Of a DNA stretch of 42,743 bases, positions 1,106-10,830 are shown in pieces. The translations under genes were made by a program, and so were the position numbers. The stretch is from positions 3,618 to 46,360 of the forward strand of contig NZ_AOJH01000084.1 of NCBI RefSeq assembly GCF_000337355.1, written 5' to 3'. The notes beneath the pieces were generated by a model, which saw nothing but the letters and a program-made list of their open reading frames with translations, was not told the origin of the DNA and searched no databases. Each line of letters opens with the position of its first letter. Position 1 is the stretch's first letter. The stretch is from Halorubrum kocurii JCM 14978. GTDB lineage: Archaea > Halobacteriota > Halobacteria > Halobacteriales > Haloferacaceae.

Positions 1106-2395
1106 TTAAAAACGCCCAGTCATCGCAAACGATTCTGGCGACACTTCCTGCTTCAATTCATTTAGCCGCTCTTTCTCGTTCCCTGACGCAGCCTCGATCA
1201 GCTTTCGATCAGGCCATGAGTGAATATGCAACCGCTCGAATTGCTCCTCGGCGATCTCTCGTACAAGCTCAATATGCTCAATTGCATACTTCGTCCACTC
1301 ACCGTGATCGTGGATTCGCTCTAACTCCTCCGCGACGTCATTGTAACCGGCCTCCCGAGTCGCTTCGAGACACATATCGAAATTCTCGCCGCGAGGGTTC
1401 ATCGGCTCATGGAACACCACATCCGGATCGACCGCTGCGAACCACGAGAGCGCCTCACGAATCTCGTCTCGATCCATCGTCGGATAGGTTGGCGAGAACG
1501 AGACGAACCGCGGCACCCCCGCACGAAAGAGTTCATCGAGCGCTTCCCACCGTGCCATTGGCGGCGGCGCATTCGGTTCGAGCGCGTCGACGAGTGACGC
1601 GTCGAACGATGGGATCGAGGTACCGACAGCCACCAGCCCGTCAGCCTCCTTGAACAAGTCGATGTCACGGGTCAGGTTCGGACTCCGAGAGAGGATCCGG
1701 ACCGGAATGTCCGCCTCGACGAGCTCACGAACGCACCCACGAGTGATCTGCGCTGCGCGTCGATCTTGGTAGCAGTCGGTCCCGCTAGAGAGCATTACGA
1801 CACCGCGGCCTCGTCGCGTTGTCTTCCATTCCTCCTCGAAGTCCGTGTTTTGGAGCCCTTCGTGAACGCGCTCCGGGAGGTCGTCCCGGTAGAGCAGGTA
1901 GTCGCCCCAATCGCGTTGTGGGTCCTCGACGCCGGCCTGCTCACCGAGCATCTCGTCGCGGCTGTCGATCGCCGGCGTCGACGGGACGTAGCAGAACTTA
2001 CAGCCGTGGCGACAGCCCGTGGCGACGTTGATCACGTAGTCGCAGAGGCTCTTCTCGTTGAGCTTCGACTCACTGAGGACCGTCTTCGTCGGGTCGACGT
2101 TGACCGTCAGTCCGCCCTTCTCTTCGCCGTCCTCTGACGACGCACAGTCCCAGCAGAGGAGGTGTCCGTCAGGTCGCGCACTGAACCGGTCGGTAATCTG
2201 GTTTCCGCACTCCTTACAGACGAGTCCTTGCTGCCAGAGGTTGAGTCGATCGCCGTACTGACGCTCGGCTTCGCGCAGTTCATCGAGCGTCGGATGTTTG
2301 CCCAGCTCCTCGACGACGCGACCGTCCTCGTCGACGAGGTGGACAAATCTATCGTACCACCCACCGTCGGGATCGCGTTCGGTGTCGAGTTGCAT
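1106..2395 (-). CDS. Radical SAM protein with N-terminal zinc ribbon (paralogue 1, no adjacent partner)
   Basis: A 429-residue protein. Residues 60-84 form a zinc ribbon (CKEC and CWDC, Cys 60, 63, 81, 84). Residues 128-135, CRHGCKFC, are the CX3CX2C motif that binds the radical SAM [4Fe-4S] cluster, inside VINVATGCRHGCKFCYVPST. A later block, SSGTDCYQDRRAAQITRGCV, resembles the SplB-like COG1533 radical SAM group, whose members commonly carry a TDxYQ block. It is clearly paralogous to the gene at 4515-5810 along its whole length, but here no TcmP-like gene sits upstream; instead a 148-residue unknown protein is encoded 117 bases away in the same direction. Substrate unknown; RNA, DNA or peptide are all possible. 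The radical SAM assignment is firm, the subfamily less so. Confidence 0.85.
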   Translation of the reverse strand: MQLDTERDPDGGWYDRFVHLVDEDGRVVEELGKHPTLDELREAERQYGDRLNLWQQGLVCKECGNQITDRFSARPDGHLLCWDCASSEDGEEKGGLTVNVDPTKTVLSESKLNEKSLCDYVINVATGCRHGCKFCYVPSTPAIDSRDEMLGEQAGVEDPQRDWGDYLLYRDDLPERVHEGLQNTDFEEEWKTTRRGRGVVMLSSGTDCYQDRRAAQITRGCVRELVEADIPVRILSRSPNLTRDIDLFKEADGLVAVGTSIPSFDASLVDALEPNAPPPMARWEALDELFRAGVPRFVSFSPTYPTMDRDEIREALSWFAAVDPDVVFHEPMNPRGENFDMCLEATREAGYNDVAEELERIHDHGEWTKYAIEHIELVREIAEEQFERLHIHSWPDRKLIEAASGNEKERLNELKQEVSPESFAMTGRF

Positions 2396-2419
2396 AGGGG
2401 ATTCTCTAGTGTAACCTCG

Positions 2420-2440
2420 TATTACAAATACTATAAAAGC
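2420..2440 (-). promoter_or_regulatory. Promoter and palindrome before the first radical SAM gene
   Basis: On the minus strand CTTTTATAG (2432-2440) is a good archaeal TATA box about 40 bases before the ATG at 2395. Directly downstream, GTATTTGTAATAC (2420-2432) is a 5-base-arm palindrome lying where a repressor would block the start of transcription. The operator role is inference. Confidence 0.4.
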
Positions 2441-2512
2441 GAGGTGATACCGCGGTGGAAGTGGAACTGGAATAGGTTACACGATCTTACGCGAATCTCT
2501 TACTGCGGCGTT

Positions 2513-2959
2513 TTATATCTCGATTGTAGGAAGAGACTCGACCACGCGCTTTCGGATCTGCTCTGGGATATTTTCGACAAATATCTCTTCATCCCGATTG
2601 TTGACTGCTACATCGGGTGCCCGCAGGGTGAGGTAGTCTAATTCCTTCACCTGGCCCGTTGATAATTTCTCTATGAACAGACCGGAGGGATTCATCTCAA
2701 TTTCGTACTCGCCTCCCCTTGACTTGCCTTTGATTCTGAGAAAGTATCCCTGTTCGTCAATTTGCTTGGTTGGGGGCTCAAAAATCCCGTATTCAGACCC
2801 ATGATCCCAATTCCCTGCCTTCCACTCCGCCGTGACACTCTGAAATGCTTCAACCGAAGCAAAGAAATTCTCCACAACTTCCACCACGACTGACTCAAAA
2901 TTACCCTCATCAATTGCTTGGAGTTCAGTGTTGTCCCAGGTGACGACCAGTCCGGTCAT
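2513..2959 (-). CDS. Uncharacterised 148-residue protein
   Basis: A soluble, acidic protein starting MTGLVVTWDNTELQ and ending RKRVVESLPTIEI. No signal peptide, membrane segment, cysteine cluster or known catalytic motif is visible. It looks like a mixed alpha/beta small protein and its composition is normal for a real haloarchaeal accessory gene. It precedes the first radical SAM gene in the same direction, 117 bases away, so cotranscription is possible, but the palindrome and TATA box in the gap suggest that gene has its own promoter. I do not recognise the family. Confidence 0.55.
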   Translation of the reverse strand: MTGLVVTWDNTELQAIDEGNFESVVVEVVENFFASVEAFQSVTAEWKAGNWDHGSEYGIFEPPTKQIDEQGYFLRIKGKSRGGEYEIEMNPSGLFIEKLSTGQVKELDYLTLRAPDVAVNNRDEEIFVENIPEQIRKRVVESLPTIEI

Positions 2960-3530
2960 GGGTTCCAGAAGTGTGTTTTAGAATATAGTTGTTTGTACAG
3001 CGCCGTATGTTTATTTGCGTATTTACTAATTTCCCAGTCGGACTTGGATCTGGAAGATAGTTTCAACTGCTCTATTGAATCCGTAGACTTCGCAGGGACC
3101 GGGTTTGAATACATGGTCAGCAAACTCCAGTGGTGGCGGATTCTCACACGTGGACTTCGAACGGTAGGGTGGCTTCGGCAAACGAAAGCGGGTTCCAACC
3201 AGCGATGTGTCGTTGACTCCGACTTTAGCTTTGGATGCTAGTCCGCCGATCCGTCTGCTGTCTCCGGATTCAACAGAGTAGTCTGATCAGTATTCTCATC
3301 ATGATGTCTGCTTATCTAGACAAGCCAATTTTTGAGTTCGGTCGGATCAAGAACTTTGATGCCCTTAGCATTTGAGTCAAATCTTTTTGTTAATATACTT
3401 ACTAAAAGAGAATAGAAGAATAAATTAATATTTCCGGAGTTCACCGTAAAAGGTATGGACACACCGCACAGACTAGATCCAAAATTGGTTATTCAAAAGA
3501 TATAACTCAATTCAGGTGCTAACTATTACC
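2960..3530. other. AT-rich intergenic stretch with one MITE-like element
   Basis: No coding sequence that I can support. Besides the element at 3066-3282 the stretch contains a very AT-rich run at about 3360-3440 and a TATA-like TATAAC at 3501-3506 placed about 28 bases before the ATG at 3531, suiting a leaderless transcript of the small zinc protein gene. Confidence 0.5.
3066..3282. mobile_element. 217-base MITE-like element with IS5-type inverted ends
   Basis: The left end 3066-3088 (ACTGCTCTATTGAATCCGTA followed by GAC) and the right end 3260-3282, read on the opposite strand (ACTACTCTGTTGAATCCGGA then GAC), match at 20 of 23 positions in inverted orientation. The ends carry the same TTGAATC core as the IS5-type end at the left edge of the window and the end-like motif at 4485. 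No transposase fits between them; the ORFs crossing it have no protein-like character. I find no convincing target-site duplication. It is best read as a non-autonomous element or deletion derivative mobilised by an IS5-family transposase. Confidence 0.5.
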
Positions 3531-3782
3531 ATGGGCTTGCTCAACTCACTACTTGGCTCCGATAAGCCACCAAAATGTAGACGTGATGATCTTGATGTAG
3601 ATTGTGCGTACCGTAAAGTCGGCGAAGAAGAATTCAGTCCCAGTCATCCCGAAGGTCGTGGTAGTTCGACGACCTACCATATTTACAAGTGTAAGTACTG
3701 TGGAAGCACTAGAAGAGAAAATCCGTTTAATGAGCCAAATGATTCACAGGATGATCCGCACGACATCGGCGGTGTATTGTGA
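3531..3782 (+). CDS. Small zinc-ribbon-like protein
   Basis: An 83-residue protein from the ATG at 3531 (MGLLNSLLGSDKPPKC). A GTG at 3516 would add five residues, but the ATG is preferred because TATAAC lies about 28 bases upstream, as expected for leaderless haloarchaeal mRNA. Cysteines in CRRDDLDVDC and in CKYC give a possible four-cysteine zinc site linked by a flexible segment. The N-terminus MGLLNSLLG is a short amphipathic or hydrophobic stretch. It stands alone on the plus strand between the two minus-strand radical SAM genes. Function unknown; a regulatory or nucleic-acid contact role is speculation. Confidence 0.55.
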   Translation: MGLLNSLLGSDKPPKCRRDDLDVDCAYRKVGEEEFSPSHPEGRGSSTTYHIYKCKYCGSTRRENPFNEPNDSQDDPHDIGGVL

Positions 3783-3842
3783 ATAAAGGGTTGCGAAATC
3801 TATAAGACGAGAAAGATTACTACGAGTTGTTCTGTTGACTCG

Positions 3843-4295
3843 ATGGAAACGCTGCTATCCCTAGAGAACGTGAACCAAGATATGGGGCGCAAGAGACCGA
3901 TAAGGATTCCGTGCCATAGAGCACGTTCTGTTGACTGGTCCATGCGCGAAAGAAGTCGAGTCATGGGCGCTACAGCCCGGATGCCGCGCGCCGCGGCATC
4001 CGGGAAAGCCCGAATACGTGAATCTCTGCTTCACGTGCTGGCGTCCCGAGTCACAAGATCGCCTCTCCGAATGATGATGACCACTGGCCGGGCAGACAGA
4101 CGAGGGAGCTGAGGGCCGCCAAATCGGCGGCCCTCAGCAGTCGGTCGGGGCCCTTCTTTAGCATCTGCTATCGCTAGACAGCGACCGCACCGCACACACG
4201 TTTCGACCGCCTACCGGCTGTGGAAGAAGCAGATCCCCAGACGGCGTAATCATTTTGTTGTTAGCCGTGGTTTGGCTAGCTAGCAGCGTTTCCAT
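3843..4295. repeat. 15-base perfect inverted repeat flanking the hairpin segment
   Basis: ATGGAAACGCTGCTA at 3843-3857 recurs exactly, inverted, at 4281-4295, enclosing about 420 bases that include the GC-rich hairpins at 3965-4138. GTTCTGTTGACT also occurs twice in direct orientation (3829-3840 and 3924-3935), and ATACGTGAATC twice (4014-4024 and 4294-4304). The arrangement suggests an inserted or rearranged element, but no transposase gene or target duplication is seen. Confidence 0.4.
3960..4160 (+). ncRNA. GC-rich multi-hairpin segment: structured RNA candidate or decayed IS200/IS605 end
   Basis: Four helices can be drawn. P1 is 3965-3972 with 4039-4046 (8 pairs, two GU). Inside P1 are P2, 3976-3988 with 3992-4004 (13 perfect pairs, 3-base loop CGC), and P3, 4016-4022 with 4030-4036 (7 pairs, 7-base loop), making a three-way junction. 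P4 is 4108-4120 with 4126-4138 (13 perfect pairs, loop AAATC), followed within 20 bases by CCCTTCTTTA. The segment is GC-rich in an AT-rich neighbourhood. Alternatively it could be the 3' end of a decayed tnpB with its right-end hairpins: one open frame over 3907-4071 ends in CFTCWRPESQDRLSE, somewhat like tails I recall from haloarchaeal tnpB genes. No promoter was assigned. Confidence 0.35.
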
Positions 4296-4514
4296 ACGTG
4301 AATCCGAAGACATCGTGGTGATCGCCAATTCACAGTCTGATTCACTCTCGAATCTACGTTCTTTCACTCACTTTTACTGTTAGTGGCTGCTAAGTAGCAC
4401 GACCTCACCAAGACTCAGATCGGAAAGTCACTCGGGAAAGCTGTTCGTCCAGCCAAATCCATGCCTGATCTCACGCCTTCTGTGGATTCAACAAAGCAGT
4501 TTCAACCGAGTTGA
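4161..4514. other. Intergenic stretch with an IS5-type end motif
   Basis: No convincing gene. A 69-residue minus-strand ORF (4158-4367) has no homology I recognise. GATTCAACAAAG at 4485-4496, extending to GCAGTTTCAACC, matches the terminal motif of the MITE-like element, read outward to the right, and lies immediately before the 3' end of the second radical SAM gene. It may be a leftover IS end. Confidence 0.35.
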
Positions 4515-5810
4515 TTATGCTGAAGAGGGCAGCTTCGGGTAGTCCTCGGGCGACTCCATCTTCTCGCGTTCGCGGCGGAAGAACTCCTCGTCCTCCCCGG
4601 CGTGTTTGATGAACTCTTTGTCGGGCCACAGGTGAATCGGGAGATCGAGGTCGTCGCCGATGTCGCGAACGGCGGTCAGCTGCTCCTTCGAGTACTCGAC
4701 CCAGTGATCGCGATCGCGGAGTTTGTCGAGTTCGTCGGCGAGCTCTTCCTGTCCCGCCTCGCGTGCGGCCTCGACCGTCATCTGGAAGTTGCCGCCGCGG
4801 GGGTTGATCGGTTCGTGGAAGACGACGTCGGGGTCCAGCCGTTCCTTGAACTTGGTGAGGAGGTCGCGGAGGTCCTCGCGGTCCTGCGTCGGGTACGTCG
4901 GAGACATGGAGACGTAGACGGGAACGCCGGCGTTGCTGATCTCTTCGAGTGCGTTGAGTCGGGCAGACGGAGCAGGGGCACCGGGTTCGATCGATCGAAC
5001 CTTCTCGTCGTCGAGGCAGGGAATCGAGGATCCGACGGTGACGAGCCCGTTGGCGGCTTTGAACACGTCGATATCGCGGACGACTGCGGGGCTGCGGGTA
5101 AGGATGCGAACCGGCTTCTCGTGTTTGACGAGTTCGATGACGCAGCCGCGAGTGATCTGGGCGGCGCGGCGATCTTGGTAGCAGTCCGTTCCGCTGGAAA
5201 TCATGACGACGCCGCGGCCGTCCGGAGTTGAGTCCCAGGTTCGTTTTCGGTCCAGTTTCTGTGCGAGTCTGTCTGGGAGGTCATCTCGATACAACAGATA
5301 GCTTCCCCACTCCTGTTGACCGCTATTGACGTCCACCTGCTCTTTGAGCATGTCACCTCTTGCTTTGATATTCGGTGTACTAGGGACGTAGCAGAACTTA
5401 CACCCGTGTGTACACCCGGTAGCAACGTTGATTACGTAATTACACAGGTTCTTGTGATGAAGTGCGGATGACGATATGACGGCTTTGGTTGGATCTGTGG
5501 TATGAGAGACTCCTCGGGAATCATTTTCCATCTGCTGCTTTTCGACGCAATCCCAGCAAATGATTTCACCAGAAGACGTTGACCCGTACCGATCCTCGAT
5601 AGTAGAGCCACAATCTGAACAGCGCACTGAAGAAGAGAGAACATTAAGTCGTTCTAGAGGCTCGCCGTTCTGTCGGCTGGCTTCTCTTATTTCGTCGAGG
5701 GACGGATCATTACTTAGCAGGTCCACATACTTCCCTTGCCGCCTAACCCAAAATCCTCTGTGATCCTTTTGTAGGGCCAAGCTATTCGAGGACAGTTCAT
5801 TCGCAGTCAT
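4515..5810 (-). CDS. Radical SAM protein with N-terminal zinc ribbon (paralogue 2, paired with TcmP-like gene)
   Basis: A 431-residue protein. The zinc ribbon is at residues 64-88 (CSDC, CWDC), the radical SAM CX3CX2C motif CTHGCKFC at 133-140, and the block SSGTDCYQDRRAAQITRGCV at 205-224. It is closely similar to the protein at 1106-2395 in the core and diverges at both ends. Its ATG overlaps the stop of the upstream TcmP-like gene by four bases, so the two are cotranscribed and probably translationally coupled. In the known family, TcmP genes sit beside three-Cys proteins of the Gp37/Gp68 (DUF5131) or related radical SAM type, which fits. Composition changes inside the gene: the first ~195 codons are AT-richer (47% and 52% GC in two 60-base blocks I counted) and the rest GC-rich (65% in one block), as if recombined. 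Confidence 0.85.
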   Translation of the reverse strand: MTANELSSNSLALQKDHRGFWVRRQGKYVDLLSNDPSLDEIREASRQNGEPLERLNVLSSSVRCSDCGSTIEDRYGSTSSGEIICWDCVEKQQMENDSRGVSHTTDPTKAVISSSALHHKNLCNYVINVATGCTHGCKFCYVPSTPNIKARGDMLKEQVDVNSGQQEWGSYLLYRDDLPDRLAQKLDRKRTWDSTPDGRGVVMISSGTDCYQDRRAAQITRGCVIELVKHEKPVRILTRSPAVVRDIDVFKAANGLVTVGSSIPCLDDEKVRSIEPGAPAPSARLNALEEISNAGVPVYVSMSPTYPTQDREDLRDLLTKFKERLDPDVVFHEPINPRGGNFQMTVEAAREAGQEELADELDKLRDRDHWVEYSKEQLTAVRDIGDDLDLPIHLWPDKEFIKHAGEDEEFFRREREKMESPEDYPKLPSSA

Positions 5811-6859
5811 TGGAATTCTCCTAGGGCGGTTTGACCCGAATCTTCATCCGAGGATTCCTCAGCTAGTTCCTCTGAGATTCCTTCGTCATCGTCAGGAAGA
5901 TACGACGAAAGAGACGACTGAGACCCATCTAACACGTCCAAGATACGATCTACGTCCCCAGAATGAACCTGTTCGATGAAGTCCCGAACGTACTTGATTG
6001 TCTCTTCGTAGCCGTTTCCGGCCTTAATATCACGAGTAGCGTAGATCATATCATAATAGTAGCTTCCAACGTCAGCCTCTACCCTTGTATTAACCTGTAC
6101 TGGCCGATTTCGATCTTCTAACTGCTCTAAATACAGATCTCGCATGAACTCACGCATTCCTGTATCCGGGATATCAACTGTACTTAGATCACGACCGTAG
6201 AATTCGCCAACAGTCTCCGGATATGTACCTACGTTACGCCCGATCGCCTGTGATGTTGGCAAATTAATAAGCAGATCACCATATGGTTTCGGCGTCAGCT
6301 CCTCAATCGCAGGCCATTTGACATTCATTCCCTGATTATCAATGAAACAGAGATAATTTAGTCCATTATCATTGTTCCGGAAGCTCCTCCACATTCCGCT
6401 GATAATATCTGGAATAGCTTTATTCGCATCTCGGGGGATCACCTCCCACTGTTCCGGTTCTGCATATTTGTCACTCTTCTGATTGAACGCATACTCCAAT
6501 CTACGCTCAAGTGCTTCAGCGTGATCGGGATCCTTCTCCACGAAATACATCTTCTTGAACGGTACGGTGGCATCTTTAGCCGCGATTAGGGGGGATCCGA
6601 GAAAACATCGGTTTTCATCGTTGTATTGTGAAACGCCAGACCCTGCCAGAGCATCGATGTAATAGAGATCGTCATAGTAGTCGTTCTGGGCAAGAACGGT
6701 CGTGTACATATTCACAGTTGCTGAGTGTAGAATTAGCTTTAGAGCAGACCAGGTATCAAAATCATTTGCCTGCCCTGGGACCTGCGAATAGAACTCCTGA
6801 GAATCCTCTGTGAGGCCCTCTATTCGAGATTGAATATAATCACGTACGTCAACACCCAT
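5807..6859 (-). CDS. tcmP: TcmP-like (three-Cys-motif partner) methyltransferase-fold protein
   Basis: A 350-residue protein from the ATG at 6859; a TTG at 6868 is an alternative, but TTTTATG at 6885-6891 lies about 29 bases before the ATG, as for leaderless mRNA. Residues 68-75, IDALAGSG, match motif I (DxFAGSG type) of class I SAM-dependent methyltransferases; 106-112, FVEKDPD, fit the acidic motif II; 172-182, FIDNQGMNVKW, sit where motif IV should be but lack the usual N/DPP(Y/F), so catalysis is uncertain. The overall order recalls the TcmP family, named only for its position next to three-Cys radical SAM proteins. It is the first gene of a two-gene operon with the radical SAM gene downstream (ATGA overlap). 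The last ~30 residues are acidic. Substrate and biological role unknown. Confidence 0.7.
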   Translation of the reverse strand: MGVDVRDYIQSRIEGLTEDSQEFYSQVPGQANDFDTWSALKLILHSATVNMYTTVLAQNDYYDDLYYIDALAGSGVSQYNDENRCFLGSPLIAAKDATVPFKKMYFVEKDPDHAEALERRLEYAFNQKSDKYAEPEQWEVIPRDANKAIPDIISGMWRSFRNNDNGLNYLCFIDNQGMNVKWPAIEELTPKPYGDLLINLPTSQAIGRNVGTYPETVGEFYGRDLSTVDIPDTGMREFMRDLYLEQLEDRNRPVQVNTRVEADVGSYYYDMIYATRDIKAGNGYEETIKYVRDFIEQVHSGDVDRILDVLDGSQSSLSSYLPDDDEGISEELAEESSDEDSGQTALGEFQ

Positions 6860-6884
6860 TGAATCCAATATGTTAGTAGGGACT

Positions 6885-6891
6885 CATAAAA
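6885..6891 (-). promoter_or_regulatory. TATA box of the TcmP/radical SAM operon
   Basis: TTTTATG on the minus strand, about 29 bases before the ATG at 6859. The spacing suits a leaderless transcript. Confidence 0.45.
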
Positions 6892-7602: not shown

Positions 7603-7878
7603 TCACGCGTCTTCCAGCTCGTCGGCATCGATCTCGCCCGCGAGGTAGGCGCGACCGAGATCGGTGATCTGATAGAGTCCACGATTTTCGTCGTAGTATT
7701 CTACTAGGCCAGCCTCGTGGAGCTTCCGCATTCGACTCCGAATATGCGAGATTTTGTAATCGATATTCGCTTCCACAAACGTCGGAGACGCGTTAAGCGG
7801 CTTATTCCCGTCGTTCAGTAGAAACTCAAGTATCGTGTCGTCGGCGTGAGTCATCCACTCCACCCGAGGCCGGCGCAT
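7603..7878 (-). CDS. Winged-helix repressor-like protein (PhiH1-repressor type)
   Basis: A 91-residue protein starting MRRPRVEWMTHADDTILEFL. The pattern is a compact winged helix: helices around ADDTILEFL and SPTFVEANIDYKISHIRSRM (recognition helix region), then the wing LVEYYDENRGLYQITDLGRAYL. This is the usual layout of haloarchaeal PhiH1-repressor-like or PadR/MarR-like regulators of viruses and integrated elements. A second ATG (7854) is possible, but the MRRPRVEWM start is common in the group as I recall it. It is divergent from the rightward module that ends in the integrase and probably controls it through the 7879-8114 region. Confidence 0.75.
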   Translation of the reverse strand: MRRPRVEWMTHADDTILEFLLNDGNKPLNASPTFVEANIDYKISHIRSRMRKLHEAGLVEYYDENRGLYQITDLGRAYLAGEIDADELEDA

Positions 7879-8297: not shown

Positions 8298-8491
8298 TCG
8301 ACGCGACGGCCACCCCGTCCGGAACACCATCCGGAACCACCAAAATCCGGGGACGGTACAGGGGCCGGGACCATCCGGAACCGTTCGGAACCGTGCGGGC
8401 CACAGTAATCCGTGCGTCGGGGCGACTCCGACGCATGCCCGTTCACGACGGCGCGACCAGCACCGCGCGACGACTGACCGATGACGACTGA
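8294..8491 (+). CDS. Possible small ORF bridging to the PadR-like gene
   Basis: A 65-residue frame that overlaps the ORFs on both sides (ATGA at 8294; 11 bases with the next gene at 8481). The translation (MIDATATPSGTPSGTTKIRG and onwards) is low in acidic residues until the last few and is built largely on repeated TCCGGAA DNA, so it may be a spurious frame across a regulatory repeat array. Kept because the overlaps are tight and the direction is right. Confidence 0.25.
   Translation: MIDATATPSGTPSGTTKIRGRYRGRDHPEPFGTVRATVIRASGRLRRMPVHDGATSTARRLTDDD
8318..8390. repeat. TCCGGAA repeat array before the PadR-like gene
   Basis: TCCGGAA occurs at 8318-8324, 8330-8336 and 8374-8380, with near copies TCCGGGG (8346-8352) and TTCGGAA (8384-8390). 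Each contains or nearly contains the palindrome TCCGGA. An 8-base stem (TGCGTCGG with CCGACGCA) follows near 8413-8435. This could be an autoregulatory operator or iteron-like array for the module that begins with the PadR-like gene. Confidence 0.45.
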
Positions 8492-8855
8492 CGACACCAC
8501 CATGAGCGACGCACATACCCAGCCGACAGACGAGCCGCACAGCGACGAGACCACCTGGTACGACCTCCTCGGGTTCCAGCGCGACCTCCTCCTGGTCGCC
8601 GCCGAGGTCGAAGGCGAGGAGCTGCCGAAGGGACTGACGCTGATGAGCCGCCTCGAAGACCGGTACTCCGACCCGATCAACCACGGCCGGCTGTACAGCA
8701 ACCTCGGCGACCTCGAAGAGGAGGGCCTGATCGAGACGGAACAGTTCGACGGCCGGACGAACGCCTACCGAATCACCGATCGCGGTCGCGAGCTACTGTC
8801 ACGAGGTCGTGACAGTCTCGATTCCGCACTAGAAGGTGAGGGGGTGGACGAATGA
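8481..8855 (+). CDS. PadR-family winged-helix regulator
   Basis: A 124-residue protein; an internal ATG at 8502 would remove seven residues. The core TWYDLLGFQRDLLLVAAEVE, then SRLEDRYSDPINHGRLYSNL, then the wing LIETEQFDGRTNAYRITDRG matches PadR-type winged-helix regulators, with the acidic tail common in haloarchaeal versions. Its stop overlaps the start of the next gene by four bases (ATGA at 8852-8855), and that gene likewise overlaps the integrase, so regulator, zinc protein and integrase form one transcription unit. It probably regulates the element itself, perhaps through the TCCGGAA array just upstream (inference). Confidence 0.8.
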   Translation: MTTDDTTMSDAHTQPTDEPHSDETTWYDLLGFQRDLLLVAAEVEGEELPKGLTLMSRLEDRYSDPINHGRLYSNLGDLEEEGLIETEQFDGRTNAYRITDRGRELLSRGRDSLDSALEGEGVDE

Positions 8856-9757
8856 GCCCGACCGTCGACGTCGAAGTCCGCCGGAACCGCCACGGCTCGG
8901 TGCTGGCGTACGCGGACCGCGACCGCGCGGCGCGCCTCCTCGCGGACCATCGGGCCGTGCTCCAGTCGCTCTACGACCTCGTCGACCGCCGGCACGGGTC
9001 GGACGGCGAGACCGTCGCGCGCCTCGCTGTTCGCGAAGACTCGCGAATCGTCGACGAACTCGACCTCCGGGACCGGTTCCGGCGCGACCTCGAGGCTGAC
9101 CGCGCGATCGCGCTCGTCGAGGACCTCCGGTACCACGCCGGCGAGCGCGAGCTCGTGACTGACGGCGGAACCGATCTGTGCGGAGACGAGAGCCGCTTCT
9201 TCTGGACTGGTGAGGAGTGTCCGGACTGTGGCGGGGACCTGGAACAGCAGGACGAACACAACGTGATGTGCCTGACCTGCGAGGCGGTCTTCCAGCACCT
9301 CCTCACGGAGAGCGAGCATGTCCTGCACACTCCTGAACGTGACGAGAGCGTCAGGAAGCCCCGGGCCGTGACGGATGGTGGCCCGGAGTCCGAAAAGAAC
9401 TGGATGCAGAGCCTCCTCGGGGCAGCGAGCCAATTCGAGGAGGAACACGACGACTTGGAGGTAATCCTTGAGGGAGCGATCGGCTTCCACACGTTCTATG
9501 TCGCGGACGGAGACGATCCGACTCGTGGCGTGAAGACCGCCCTCTACAGCGGACTCAACGATCTCCTAGAGGAGGTCAGCGTCGACGCCGATACCGTTCG
9601 GCTGAACCACGGCGCTGTGACGCCGGAAACCGTTCGCCAGGAGACGGTGGACCAGATAGCGGAGTTCACGTACGTTCCCGAATCGCTTGCAGAATCCATC
9701 GGTGAGAGCGTCGAGGAACGCGTTCGGCAGAACCTGAACGGGGAGGATTCTCGATGA
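8852..9757 (+). CDS. Zinc-ribbon protein of haloarchaeal integrative elements
   Basis: A 301-residue acidic protein with one clear zinc ribbon at residues 123-143 (CPDC and CLTC). The N-terminal ~110 residues are charged and helical; the C-terminal ~130 residues (WMQSLLGAASQFEEEHDDLE and onwards) are acidic with no recognised domain. It is locked between the PadR-like regulator and the integrase by ATGA overlaps on both sides, so it is likely an accessory factor for recombination or element maintenance. I do not know a named family for it; the role is inferred from context only. Confidence 0.65.
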   Translation: MSPTVDVEVRRNRHGSVLAYADRDRAARLLADHRAVLQSLYDLVDRRHGSDGETVARLAVREDSRIVDELDLRDRFRRDLEADRAIALVEDLRYHAGERELVTDGGTDLCGDESRFFWTGEECPDCGGDLEQQDEHNVMCLTCEAVFQHLLTESEHVLHTPERDESVRKPRAVTDGGPESEKNWMQSLLGAASQFEEEHDDLEVILEGAIGFHTFYVADGDDPTRGVKTALYSGLNDLLEEVSVDADTVRLNHGAVTPETVRQETVDQIAEFTYVPESLAESIGESVEERVRQNLNGEDSR

Positions 9758-10830
9758 GCCGAAAGGGCTCCTCGCCGCCCGCGAACCCGTCCGATCTCTC
9801 CCCGCGGCAGGCCCGCGACCGGTTCCTCGAGAAGCGGTCGATGGAGAACTCGGCGAAGACGATCCGGAGCTACAACAACCGCCTCACCCGGTGGGTCCAC
9901 TGGTGCGAAGAGCGCGGCGTCGAGCGCGTCGGCGACCTCTCCGGCTGGCTGTTCGACGAGTACGAGCGCCACCTCCGCGCAGAGGAGAACGCCCCGGCCA
10001 CGGTGAAGGGGAAGATGACCGCCGTCTCGCAGGTGGTCCAGTACCTCGCGACGATCGAGGCCGTCGACGAGGACCTCCCGGAGAAGGTCCACGTCCCGAA
10101 GCTCACCCGGTCGCAGGAGACGAGCGACACGATGCTCGACACCGAGGACGCGAAGCAGCTCCTCGAGTTCTACCGGAACGATCCGGCCCGCTTCGGCACC
10201 CCGCCGCACGCCGTCCTCGAGGTGTTCTGGAACACGGGCTGCCGGCTCGGCGCGGTCGTGGGGCTCGACCTCGCTGATTACGACCCGGAGAACGGGTATC
10301 TCGACTTCAACCACCGGCCCGAGTCGGGGACGCCCCTCAAGAACAACGAGCAGGGCGAGCGCGTCGTCCGTATCTCGGAGCCAGTCGTCGACGCCCTGGA
10401 CACGTACATCGCTCGCGAGCGATCGGACAAGCGCGACGAGTACGGTCGGGAGCCGTTGTTCGCTGGCCGTCAGGGGCGCGTCACGGACACGACGATCCGT
10501 TCGTGGACGTATCAGGGGACACAGCCCTGTCTCTACATGGAGTGCCCGCACGGGCGTCGTCGACGGAACTGCAAGTTCACGGAGCGCTCGCACGCCTCGA
10601 AGTGCCCCTCCTCGCGGGCGCCCCACCACATCCGGACGGGGTCGCTCACGTGGCACTGCGACCGCGGGCTCCCGATCGAGGTGATCAGCGAGCGCGTCGA
10701 CGCGGACCCGGACACGATCAAGCGCTACTACGACAAGGCGGACCGGCACCGGAAAATGGCAGAACGCCGAGAGGAGTACACTGCGGACCTCGATATCGCC
10801 GGAATCGGCGATGAGGAGGACGACTCATGA
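9754..10830 (+). CDS. Tyrosine recombinase (phage-type integrase) with zinc-finger insertion
   Basis: A 358-residue XerC/D-like site-specific recombinase. The N-terminal SAM-like core-binding domain spans about residues 18-105 (SAKTIRSYNNRLTRWVHWCE). In the catalytic domain, Arg164 lies in NTGCRLGAVVGLDL, the HxxR box is His291-Arg294 (HHIRTGSLTW), and the nucleophile is Tyr325 or Tyr326 (TIKRYYDKAD). A cysteine cluster between the boxes (Cys259, 264, 273, 284; CLYMECPHG and CKFTERSHASKC) forms a zinc-finger-like insertion that, from memory, is common in haloarchaeal integrases. It is the last large gene of the regulator/zinc-protein/integrase unit and presumably moves the element. The attachment site is not identified; no tRNA is adjacent. 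Confidence 0.9.
   Translation: MSRKGSSPPANPSDLSPRQARDRFLEKRSMENSAKTIRSYNNRLTRWVHWCEERGVERVGDLSGWLFDEYERHLRAEENAPATVKGKMTAVSQVVQYLATIEAVDEDLPEKVHVPKLTRSQETSDTMLDTEDAKQLLEFYRNDPARFGTPPHAVLEVFWNTGCRLGAVVGLDLADYDPENGYLDFNHRPESGTPLKNNEQGERVVRISEPVVDALDTYIARERSDKRDEYGREPLFAGRQGRVTDTTIRSWTYQGTQPCLYMECPHGRRRRNCKFTERSHASKCPSSRAPHHIRTGSLTWHCDRGLPIEVISERVDADPDTIKRYYDKADRHRKMAERREEYTADLDIAGIGDEEDDS

What the first reader, a model, noticed from the sequence alone, without database searches (positions are those of the whole stretch)
4515..6891. TcmP-like methyltransferase-fold gene coupled to a zinc-ribbon radical SAM gene in a mobile island
The two genes overlap by ATGA. The first has a class I methyltransferase motif I (IDALAGSG) and an acidic motif II, but an unusual FIDNQGMNVKW where NPPY-type catalysis should be. 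The second carries a four-Cys zinc ribbon and CX3CX2C. Seen: motifs, overlap and shared promoter. Known: TcmP is named only for sitting beside three-Cys proteins; no function is established as far as I know. Inferred: together they might install or remove a modification on nucleic acid, possibly for defence against mobile elements, since they sit among IS remnants next to an integrase module.
Basis: partly seen in the sequence, partly recalled or inferred. Interest (0 to 1): 0.75.

Follow-up and report, generated by a model that had tools for sequence, protein, structure and literature searches.

The report
Shuffled methyltransferase and radical-SAM gene cassette
A salt-loving archaeon carries, on acquired DNA, a methyltransferase-like gene (TcmP) with two radical-SAM enzyme genes; every relative of TcmP examined sits beside a radical-SAM gene and different TcmPs are swapped next to near-identical radical-SAM pairs, which points to an uncharacterised nucleic-acid-modifying, probably anti-virus, system.

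Summary
In detail: TcmP (5807-6868, minus) and a zinc-ribbon radical-SAM gene (rSAM1, 4515-5810) overlap by ATGA and carry the stated motifs. TcmP+rSAM1 are adjacent in 26/26 haloarchaeal TcmP genomes, with rSAM2 in 22. From the rSAM side, 56/62 loci in other genomes, mostly cyanobacteria, have TcmP next door. From the TcmP side, 30/30 cyanobacterial TcmPs adjoin exactly one radical-SAM gene (26 DUF5131, 4 of this type). TcmP is predicted to fold like the RNA base methyltransferases RlmJ and Trm1 and keeps RlmJ's essential Asp and probably its Lys; rSAM1 folds most like spore photoproduct lyase. New: TcmP type is uncoupled from its partners (Mantel rho 0.01), whereas rSAM1 and rSAM2 travel together (rho 0.72), with DNA homology ending at the rSAM2 stop codon. 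The pair's bacterial form matches PADLOC's unvalidated candidates PDC-M30/M41, so 'nucleic-acid modification, possibly defence' is plausible and partly anticipated; no substrate or activity is shown. I file it as a new variant of the TcmP-radical-SAM kind.

The parts
5807..6868 (-). TcmP: compact class I methyltransferase-fold protein, 353 aa (ATG start at 6859 also possible)
   Evidence: TIGR04474 89.7 bits, E 2.9e-25; AF2 pLDDT 83.7, RlmJ/Trm1 best folds; GC 46% against 69% for window 11-42 kb
4515..5810 (-). rSAM1: radical SAM enzyme with N-terminal zinc ribbon, spore-photoproduct-lyase-like
   Evidence: PF04055 7.5e-16; AF2 pLDDT 91.5, best fold SPL 4fhf E 2.8e-7; adjacent to TcmP in all haloarchaeal loci
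1106..2395 (-). rSAM2: paralogous radical SAM enzyme with zinc ribbon (C60, C63, C81, C84) and CX3CX2C; third member of the unit
   Evidence: 51% identical to rSAM1; present in 21 of 25 haloarchaeal TcmP loci and in a 26th; own genome holds only these two relatives
5807..5810 (-). ATGA stop/start overlap of TcmP and rSAM1
   Evidence: sequence
2396..4514 (.). 2.1-kb insert between rSAM1 and rSAM2, a stretch of under 500 bp in the relatives that have both genes side by side; holds repeat-element remnants at 3831-4051 and 4098-4302
   Evidence: repeats elsewhere in own genome; rSAM genes close together in relatives
7603..7878 (-). small winged-helix protein; relatives lie between TcmP and an integrase in L028, L032, L041
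   Evidence: weak HTH matches
9754..10830 (+). tyrosine recombinase (XerC/D-like) of the carrying island; generic in the genus
   Evidence: PF00589 2.2e-7; relatives near TcmP in 5 other loci; 92-96% identical copies in same-genus genomes that gave no TcmP match

Best explanation
The three genes are a mobile conflict module that chemically modifies a nucleobase in two steps. TcmP, a compact relative of the RNA base methyltransferases RlmJ and Trm1, uses SAM to transfer a group (most simply a methyl) onto a base amine in DNA or RNA. The radical-SAM enzymes, relatives of spore photoproduct lyase, then do radical chemistry on the same base, either building it up further or reversing it. The two kinds of enzyme most likely meet on the shared substrate rather than through a tight interface, because very different TcmPs pair with near-identical radical-SAM genes and with a second radical-SAM family, DUF5131. 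TcmP would be the exchangeable part, setting the target or effect; the rSAM1-rSAM2 pair would be the conserved core. The module is carried as cargo by islands, plasmids and prophages and probably serves defence against other mobile elements. Shown: the genes, pairing, folds (predicted), catalytic-residue conservation, shuffling. Inferred: methyl transfer, shared substrate, order of steps, defence.
For: Pairing: 25/25 haloarchaeal TcmP genomes have rSAM1 adjacent, plus Haladaptatus salinisoli; 56/62 rSAM loci from other genomes have TcmP adjacent, in four gene geometries; 30/30 TcmP-first cyanobacterial loci have exactly one radical-SAM neighbour, 26 DUF5131 and 4 COG1533-like. Enzyme identity: TcmP model best matches RlmJ (Z 15.3, 216 residues, 3.5 A) and Trm1 (Z 15.9); it shares DxxAGxG...GSPLIA with RlmJ; the motif IV Asp D177 is 38/38 and K44 37/38, the likely counterparts of RlmJ D164 and K18, whose mutation abolishes activity (PMC3814359). 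rSAM1 model and profile both best match spore photoproduct lyase. Partner logic: TcmP identity is uncorrelated with rSAM1/rSAM2 (rho 0.01, -0.12) while rSAM1-rSAM2 rho 0.72, p<0.001; TcmP type needs 17 changes on the rSAM tree against a minimum of 2; DNA homology covers only rSAM1-rSAM2 and ends at the rSAM2 stop. In Halorientalis persicus an Eco57I-type N6-adenine DNA methylase takes TcmP's place, overlapping the rSAM gene. Context: BREX, R-M, Hna (PMC12445080), phage immunity repressor and integrase, PADLOC hits in flanks, PADLOC candidates PDC-M41/M30.
Against: No activity or substrate is known for TcmP or this rSAM family. Motif IV lost the PPY of amino-methyltransferases and the window clade also lost the Pro, so methyl transfer may be impaired or altered. 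The K44-K18 match rests on motif spacing and fold coverage, not on a printed residue superposition. The flank enrichment for defence genes is crude: family-hit counts, one control set for haloarchaea, none for cyanobacteria. DUF5131 without TcmP sits in replication modules of phages, so the radical-SAM half can serve something other than defence.
Confidence: 0.5

Rival explanations
1. Toxin-antidote or abortive-infection module: TcmP places a harmful modification on host RNA or DNA and the radical-SAM enzyme removes or prevents it; infection disturbs the balance.
For: Asymmetry: TcmP was never found without a radical-SAM neighbour (26/26 and 30/30), whereas radical-SAM genes occur without TcmP (6/62 loci; 4 haloarchaeal genomes). 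Convergent or divergent orientation gives the two genes separate promoters in many loci. Spore photoproduct lyase, the nearest fold, is an eraser of a base lesion.
Against: No sign that TcmP is toxic; partner exchange at 15-20% TcmP identity would require the antidote to reverse the same product each time; lone radical-SAM genes may be a different subfamily.
Confidence: 0.2
2. Self-protection rather than defence: the cassette modifies the DNA of the element that carries it so that it escapes host restriction.
For: Carriers are plasmids, prophages and islands; DUF5131 relatives are common in phages, including haloarchaeal PhiCh1.
Against: Loci without an obvious own element exist; TcmP pairs sit in the immunity region of a temperate phage and beside host defence systems rather than in replication modules.
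Confidence: 0.12
3. UV-lesion repair: an SPL-like lyase with a methyltransferase partner, useful to sun-exposed haloarchaea and cyanobacteria.
For: Fold and sequence similarity to spore photoproduct lyase; abundance in haloarchaea and cyanobacteria.
Against: Patchy presence (25 of 392 haloarchaea; no match in the other same-genus genomes listed), partner shuffling, mobile context, and occurrence in soil and rhizosphere bacteria; no known repair path needs an RlmJ-like enzyme.
Confidence: 0.08
4. TcmP of this clade is a dead methyltransferase that only binds SAM or nucleic acid and guides the radical-SAM enzymes.
For: Motif IV is DNQG in place of DPPY; the PPY is lost in all TcmPs seen.
Against: D72, G76, G91, S92 and D177 are invariant and K44 nearly so across 38 divergent TcmPs, which suggests retained catalysis.
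Confidence: 0.08

Closest known systems
PADLOC candidates PDC-M41 and PDC-M30 (TcmP + DUF5131)
   Same: Component A matches this TcmP (PDC-M41A, E 2.1e-19; PDC-M30A, 3.3e-6); two-gene TcmP plus radical-SAM logic; convergent overlapping arrangement also seen in short-rSAM1 haloarchaeal loci
   Different: Component B is DUF5131; neither window radical-SAM protein matches any PADLOC model; here there are two radical-SAM genes, zinc ribbons, and co-directional TcmP-rSAM1; the candidates themselves lack experimental proof as far as I could find
NCBIfam TIGR04474, three-Cys-motif partner TcmP
   Same: Score over curated cut-off; neighbour is a three-cysteine radical-SAM protein
   Different: Belongs to a haloarchaeal clade with Asp-Asn in place of Asp-Pro in motif IV
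RlmJ (23S rRNA m6A2030 methyltransferase)
   Same: Best fold match with Trm1; DxxAGxG, GSPLIA, motif IV Asp and (inferred) N-terminal Lys kept
   Different: No DPPY, no helical subdomain between motif I and GSP, and 14-18% identity in structural alignment
Trm1 (tRNA m2,2G26 methyltransferase)
   Same: Equal-best fold (Z 15.9); Asp-Pro-Phe/Tyr-Gly form of motif IV as in DPFG-type TcmPs
   Different: No significant sequence match; window clade has DNQG
Spore photoproduct lyase
   Same: Best fold and best PDB sequence match of rSAM1; ATGCxxxCxxCY motif
   Different: Below Pfam SPL cut-off (22.7 against 27); zinc ribbon; gene partner TcmP
Radical SAM mobile pair A/B (TIGR04470/TIGR04471)
   Same: Two adjacent radical-SAM genes in mobile DNA; A is DUF5131-like, B matches rSAM1
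   Different: Far below cut-off (64 against 410 bits); no TcmP next to the pairs looked at

Membership tests
TcmP (TIGR04474) | Score over the curated cut-off of 53 bits | tested here: met
   89.7 bits, profile 2-260 of 263
TcmP (TIGR04474) | Encoded beside a three-Cys-motif / radical-SAM protein | tested here: met
   rSAM1 overlaps TcmP; 26/26 haloarchaeal and 30/30 cyanobacterial TcmPs
PADLOC PDC-M41 | Component A (TcmP) model | tested here: met
   E 2.1e-19 over residues 39-211; a partial match, no curated cut-off available
PADLOC PDC-M41 | Component B (DUF5131) model | tested here: not met
   no PADLOC match for 4515-5810 or 1106-2395 at E up to 1
PADLOC PDC-M41 | Demonstrated antiviral activity | not testable with these tools
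   needs plaque or transformation assays
Radical SAM superfamily | PF04055 over cut-off and CX3CX2C | tested here: met
   59.2 bits (cut-off 29.5); C133, C137, C140
DUF5131 / Gp37-Gp68 (PF07505) | Pfam match | tested here: not met
   no PF07505 match, though profile comparison to a DUF5131 protein gives E 2.3e-5
Spore photoproduct lyase (PF20903) | Pfam gathering score | tested here: not met
   22.7 bits against 27
Spore photoproduct lyase | Catalytic H-donor cysteine outside the cluster | tested here: inconclusive
   C210 is the nearest candidate, yet is Pro in cyanobacterial members; no residue superposition available
Radical SAM mobile pair B (TIGR04470) | Curated cut-off 410 bits | tested here: not met
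   64.1 bits
RlmJ-type m6A methyltransferase | DPPY/F motif IV | tested here: not met
   window DNQG; other TcmPs mostly DPxG
RlmJ-type m6A methyltransferase | Essential Lys and Asp (K18, D164) | tested here: inconclusive
   D177 38/38 and K44 37/38 sit at the expected places by motif spacing and fold coverage; residue superposition was not printed
Trm1 (PF02005) | Pfam match | tested here: not met
   no Pfam match at all for TcmP

The most novel reading that the evidence does not exclude
An immune system that writes a previously undescribed nucleobase by sequential SAM-dependent and radical-SAM chemistry, with a conserved two-enzyme radical-SAM core and an interchangeable TcmP that sets target or outcome, swapped between cassettes much as specificity subunits are in restriction systems.
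Probability: 0.22. Interest if true: 0.92.

Novelty: new variant of a known kind. Interest (0 to 1): 0.62.

Why it matters
TcmP is common (86 of 293 genomes sampled in one cyanobacterial order) and spread over archaea, bacteria, plasmids and phages, yet I found no functional study of it. The evidence here says what to assay: an RlmJ/Trm1-like enzyme with likely catalytic Lys/Asp, always with a radical-SAM partner, and exchanged independently of that partner. If the two act on one base, this would be a new kind of nucleic-acid modification in genetic conflicts; if TcmP proves toxic alone, a new kind of toxin and eraser pair. Either is testable in a laboratory haloarchaeon or E. coli.

Tried and rejected
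Literature search for TcmP function: only incidental mentions (PMC12429752, PMC12445080); no study of PDC-M41/M30 found. RiPP-type peptide modification: considered and set aside, because the best fold is spore photoproduct lyase rather than a peptide maturase and I saw no obvious precursor gene; no search for leader-binding domains or precursors was made. Rv2578c/PA0069 housekeeping orthology: scores far below cut-offs. Mosaic origin of rSAM1 by a window-specific recombination between zinc ribbon and core: rejected, since the N-terminus is less conserved than the core in every pair compared. Integrase as part of the system: rejected as specific, since 92-96% identical integrases occur in same-genus genomes that gave no TcmP match. 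Island boundary and att site: not found; no exact repeat of the integrase-flanking DNA in the window, no tRNA nearby, and the left side runs toward the contig end. Profile comparison of TcmP with E. coli RlmJ and own-genome Trm1 aligned only short stretches.

Full report
What is there. On the minus strand, TcmP (5807-6868, 353 aa) is followed by rSAM1 (4515-5810, 431 aa), sharing ATGA. TcmP passes the NCBIfam TcmP cut-off (89.7 against 53 bits) and rSAM1 the Pfam radical-SAM cut-off. A second radical-SAM gene, rSAM2 (1106-2395), is 51% identical to rSAM1, has the same zinc ribbon and cluster motif, and lies 2.1 kb further on, beyond an insert holding repeat-element remnants. The own genome has no other relatives of rSAM1. 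TcmP is 46% GC, the insert 48%, and window positions 11-42 kb 69%, so the region looks acquired.

Pairing in haloarchaea. TcmP is patchy: 25 of 392 genomes of the order, 18 of 95 genera, and none of the other same-genus genomes listed. All 25 have rSAM1 adjacent and 21 also rSAM2; Haladaptatus salinisoli, missed by the family search, makes 26 and 22. From the other side, a near-full-length rSAM occurs in 30 of the 392 genomes, of which 26 have TcmP and four do not. Orders and strands differ among loci (TcmP first, last or between; co-directional, convergent, divergent), so a frozen operon does not explain the link.

Pairing beyond haloarchaea. A scan of about 85,000 species genomes for the rSAM found 62 loci, mostly cyanobacteria plus a verrucomicrobium and an uncultured archaeon; 56 have TcmP as a close neighbour. 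Starting instead from TcmP in the order of Nostoc, 86 of 293 genomes have it, and the 30 best-scoring loci each hold exactly one radical-SAM neighbour: 26 DUF5131 and 4 of the window type. DUF5131 is a recognisable distant relative of rSAM1 (E 2.3e-5). So TcmP needs a radical-SAM partner, and two radical-SAM families are interchangeable in that role. The sample of 30 is the top of the score list, which may favour canonical cases.

What the proteins are. The TcmP model (pLDDT 83.7) is a class I methyltransferase fold; its best solved relatives are RlmJ and Trm1, both RNA base methyltransferases. RlmJ's sequence shows the same DxxAGxG, GSPLIA and acidic motif II, with a helical insert that TcmP lacks. 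RlmJ loses all activity when K18 or D164 is changed to Ala (PMC3814359); the likely TcmP counterparts K44 and D177 are 37/38 and 38/38. The Lys match is inferred from motif spacing and the aligned range. Motif IV is DPxG in most TcmPs, recalling Trm1 (the own-genome Trm1 has DPYG), and DN[QE] in one haloarchaeal clade that includes the window. Some DPFG-type TcmPs carry a C-terminal winged helix (PF22560). The rSAM1 model (pLDDT 91.5) best matches spore photoproduct lyase, by fold and by profile.

Shuffling. In haloarchaea TcmP falls into three clades, each one side of a branch. Their labels are scattered over the rSAM tree: 17 changes where 2 would do, close to the shuffled mean of 19.5. Pairwise TcmP identity (mean 29%) does not follow that of rSAM1 (rho 0.01, p 0.39) or rSAM2 (rho -0.12), while rSAM1 and rSAM2 follow each other (rho 0.72, p<0.001). 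Within the small DPKG clade TcmP and rSAM1 do agree (rho 0.92, n=6), so shuffling is not constant. At the DNA level, L031/L048, L029/L044, L029/L048 and L027/L036 share 80-89% identity only across rSAM1-rSAM2 (apart from short repeats elsewhere), ending at or within about 10 bp of the rSAM2 stop codon and a short way inside the 3' end of rSAM1, while L044/L045, with one TcmP type, share TcmP through rSAM2. TcmP is thus the exchanged part. The window itself combines a DN-clade TcmP (best 58% to L041) with an rSAM1 nearest (76%) to that of L026, which has a DPFG-clade TcmP.

Context. Neighbours include BREX on a Nostoc plasmid, DUF499/DUF1156 and helicase genes in H. salinisoli, R-M genes in Rhizobium, Hna in Sinorhizobium meliloti (PMC12445080), and the immunity repressor and integrase of a Gordonia temperate phage (its gene 43 matches the TcmP profile at 2.8e-20). 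PADLOC profiles hit 126 families among 137 haloarchaeal flank ORFs against 36 among 140 control ORFs from the same replicons, and 194 among 128 cyanobacterial flank ORFs without a control. These are family counts, many per protein, so they indicate rather than prove enrichment. The bacterial pair is already in PADLOC as candidates PDC-M41 and PDC-M30.

A telling exception. In Halorientalis persicus the rSAM gene lacks TcmP and is overlapped by an Eco57I-type N6-adenine DNA methylase. A base-modifying methyltransferase of another family in TcmP's place fits the idea that TcmP also modifies bases.

Mechanism. I commit to a two-enzyme base-modification module in which TcmP acts by SAM-dependent transfer and the radical-SAM enzymes act on the same base, used in conflicts between mobile elements and hosts. 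The shared substrate is inferred from partner exchange: enzymes that keep working with partners at 15-20% identity are unlikely to depend on a detailed interface. Whether the radical-SAM step adds to the modification or removes it cannot be told here. The toxin-and-eraser rival gains from TcmP never being found alone while radical-SAM genes sometimes are.

Verdict.

Noticed in passing
L090:7952-10029 (Halorientalis persicus): An Eco57I/N6_Mtase DNA methylase overlaps the lone rSAM gene, in the place TcmP has elsewhere.
   Followed up: partly
L061-L067, L235 (Haloarcula genomes and plasmids): Several Haloarcula genomes carry short C-terminal fragments of the rSAM gene (about residues 280-424), some annotated as radical SAM domain proteins beside IS elements; decayed copies or something kept.
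   Followed up: no
L049:7747-9682: TcmP is split in two by an inserted minus-strand ORF (8327-9181) while both rSAM genes stay intact.
   Followed up: no
window:9754-10905: The integrase and 76 bp after its stop are 82-99% conserved next to near-identical integrases in same-genus genomes: a common integrase with changing cargo.
   Followed up: partly
L169:4989-5861 (Natrialba phage PhiCh1), L177, L171, L172: DUF5131 genes in phage replication or early regions without TcmP, in L169 and L177 with an ASCH-domain gene nearby; a second role for DUF5131.
   Followed up: no
Acidianus two-tailed virus records H6-H9; L141 (IMG/VR contig): Archaeal viruses encode rSAM1-like radical-SAM proteins, and a viral contig has one without TcmP next to it.
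   Followed up: no
L075 and L180 (radical SAM mobile pair): In the gut-bacterium 'radical SAM mobile pair', protein A is DUF5131-like and protein B is rSAM1-like, so a two-radical-SAM arrangement exists without TcmP.
   Followed up: no
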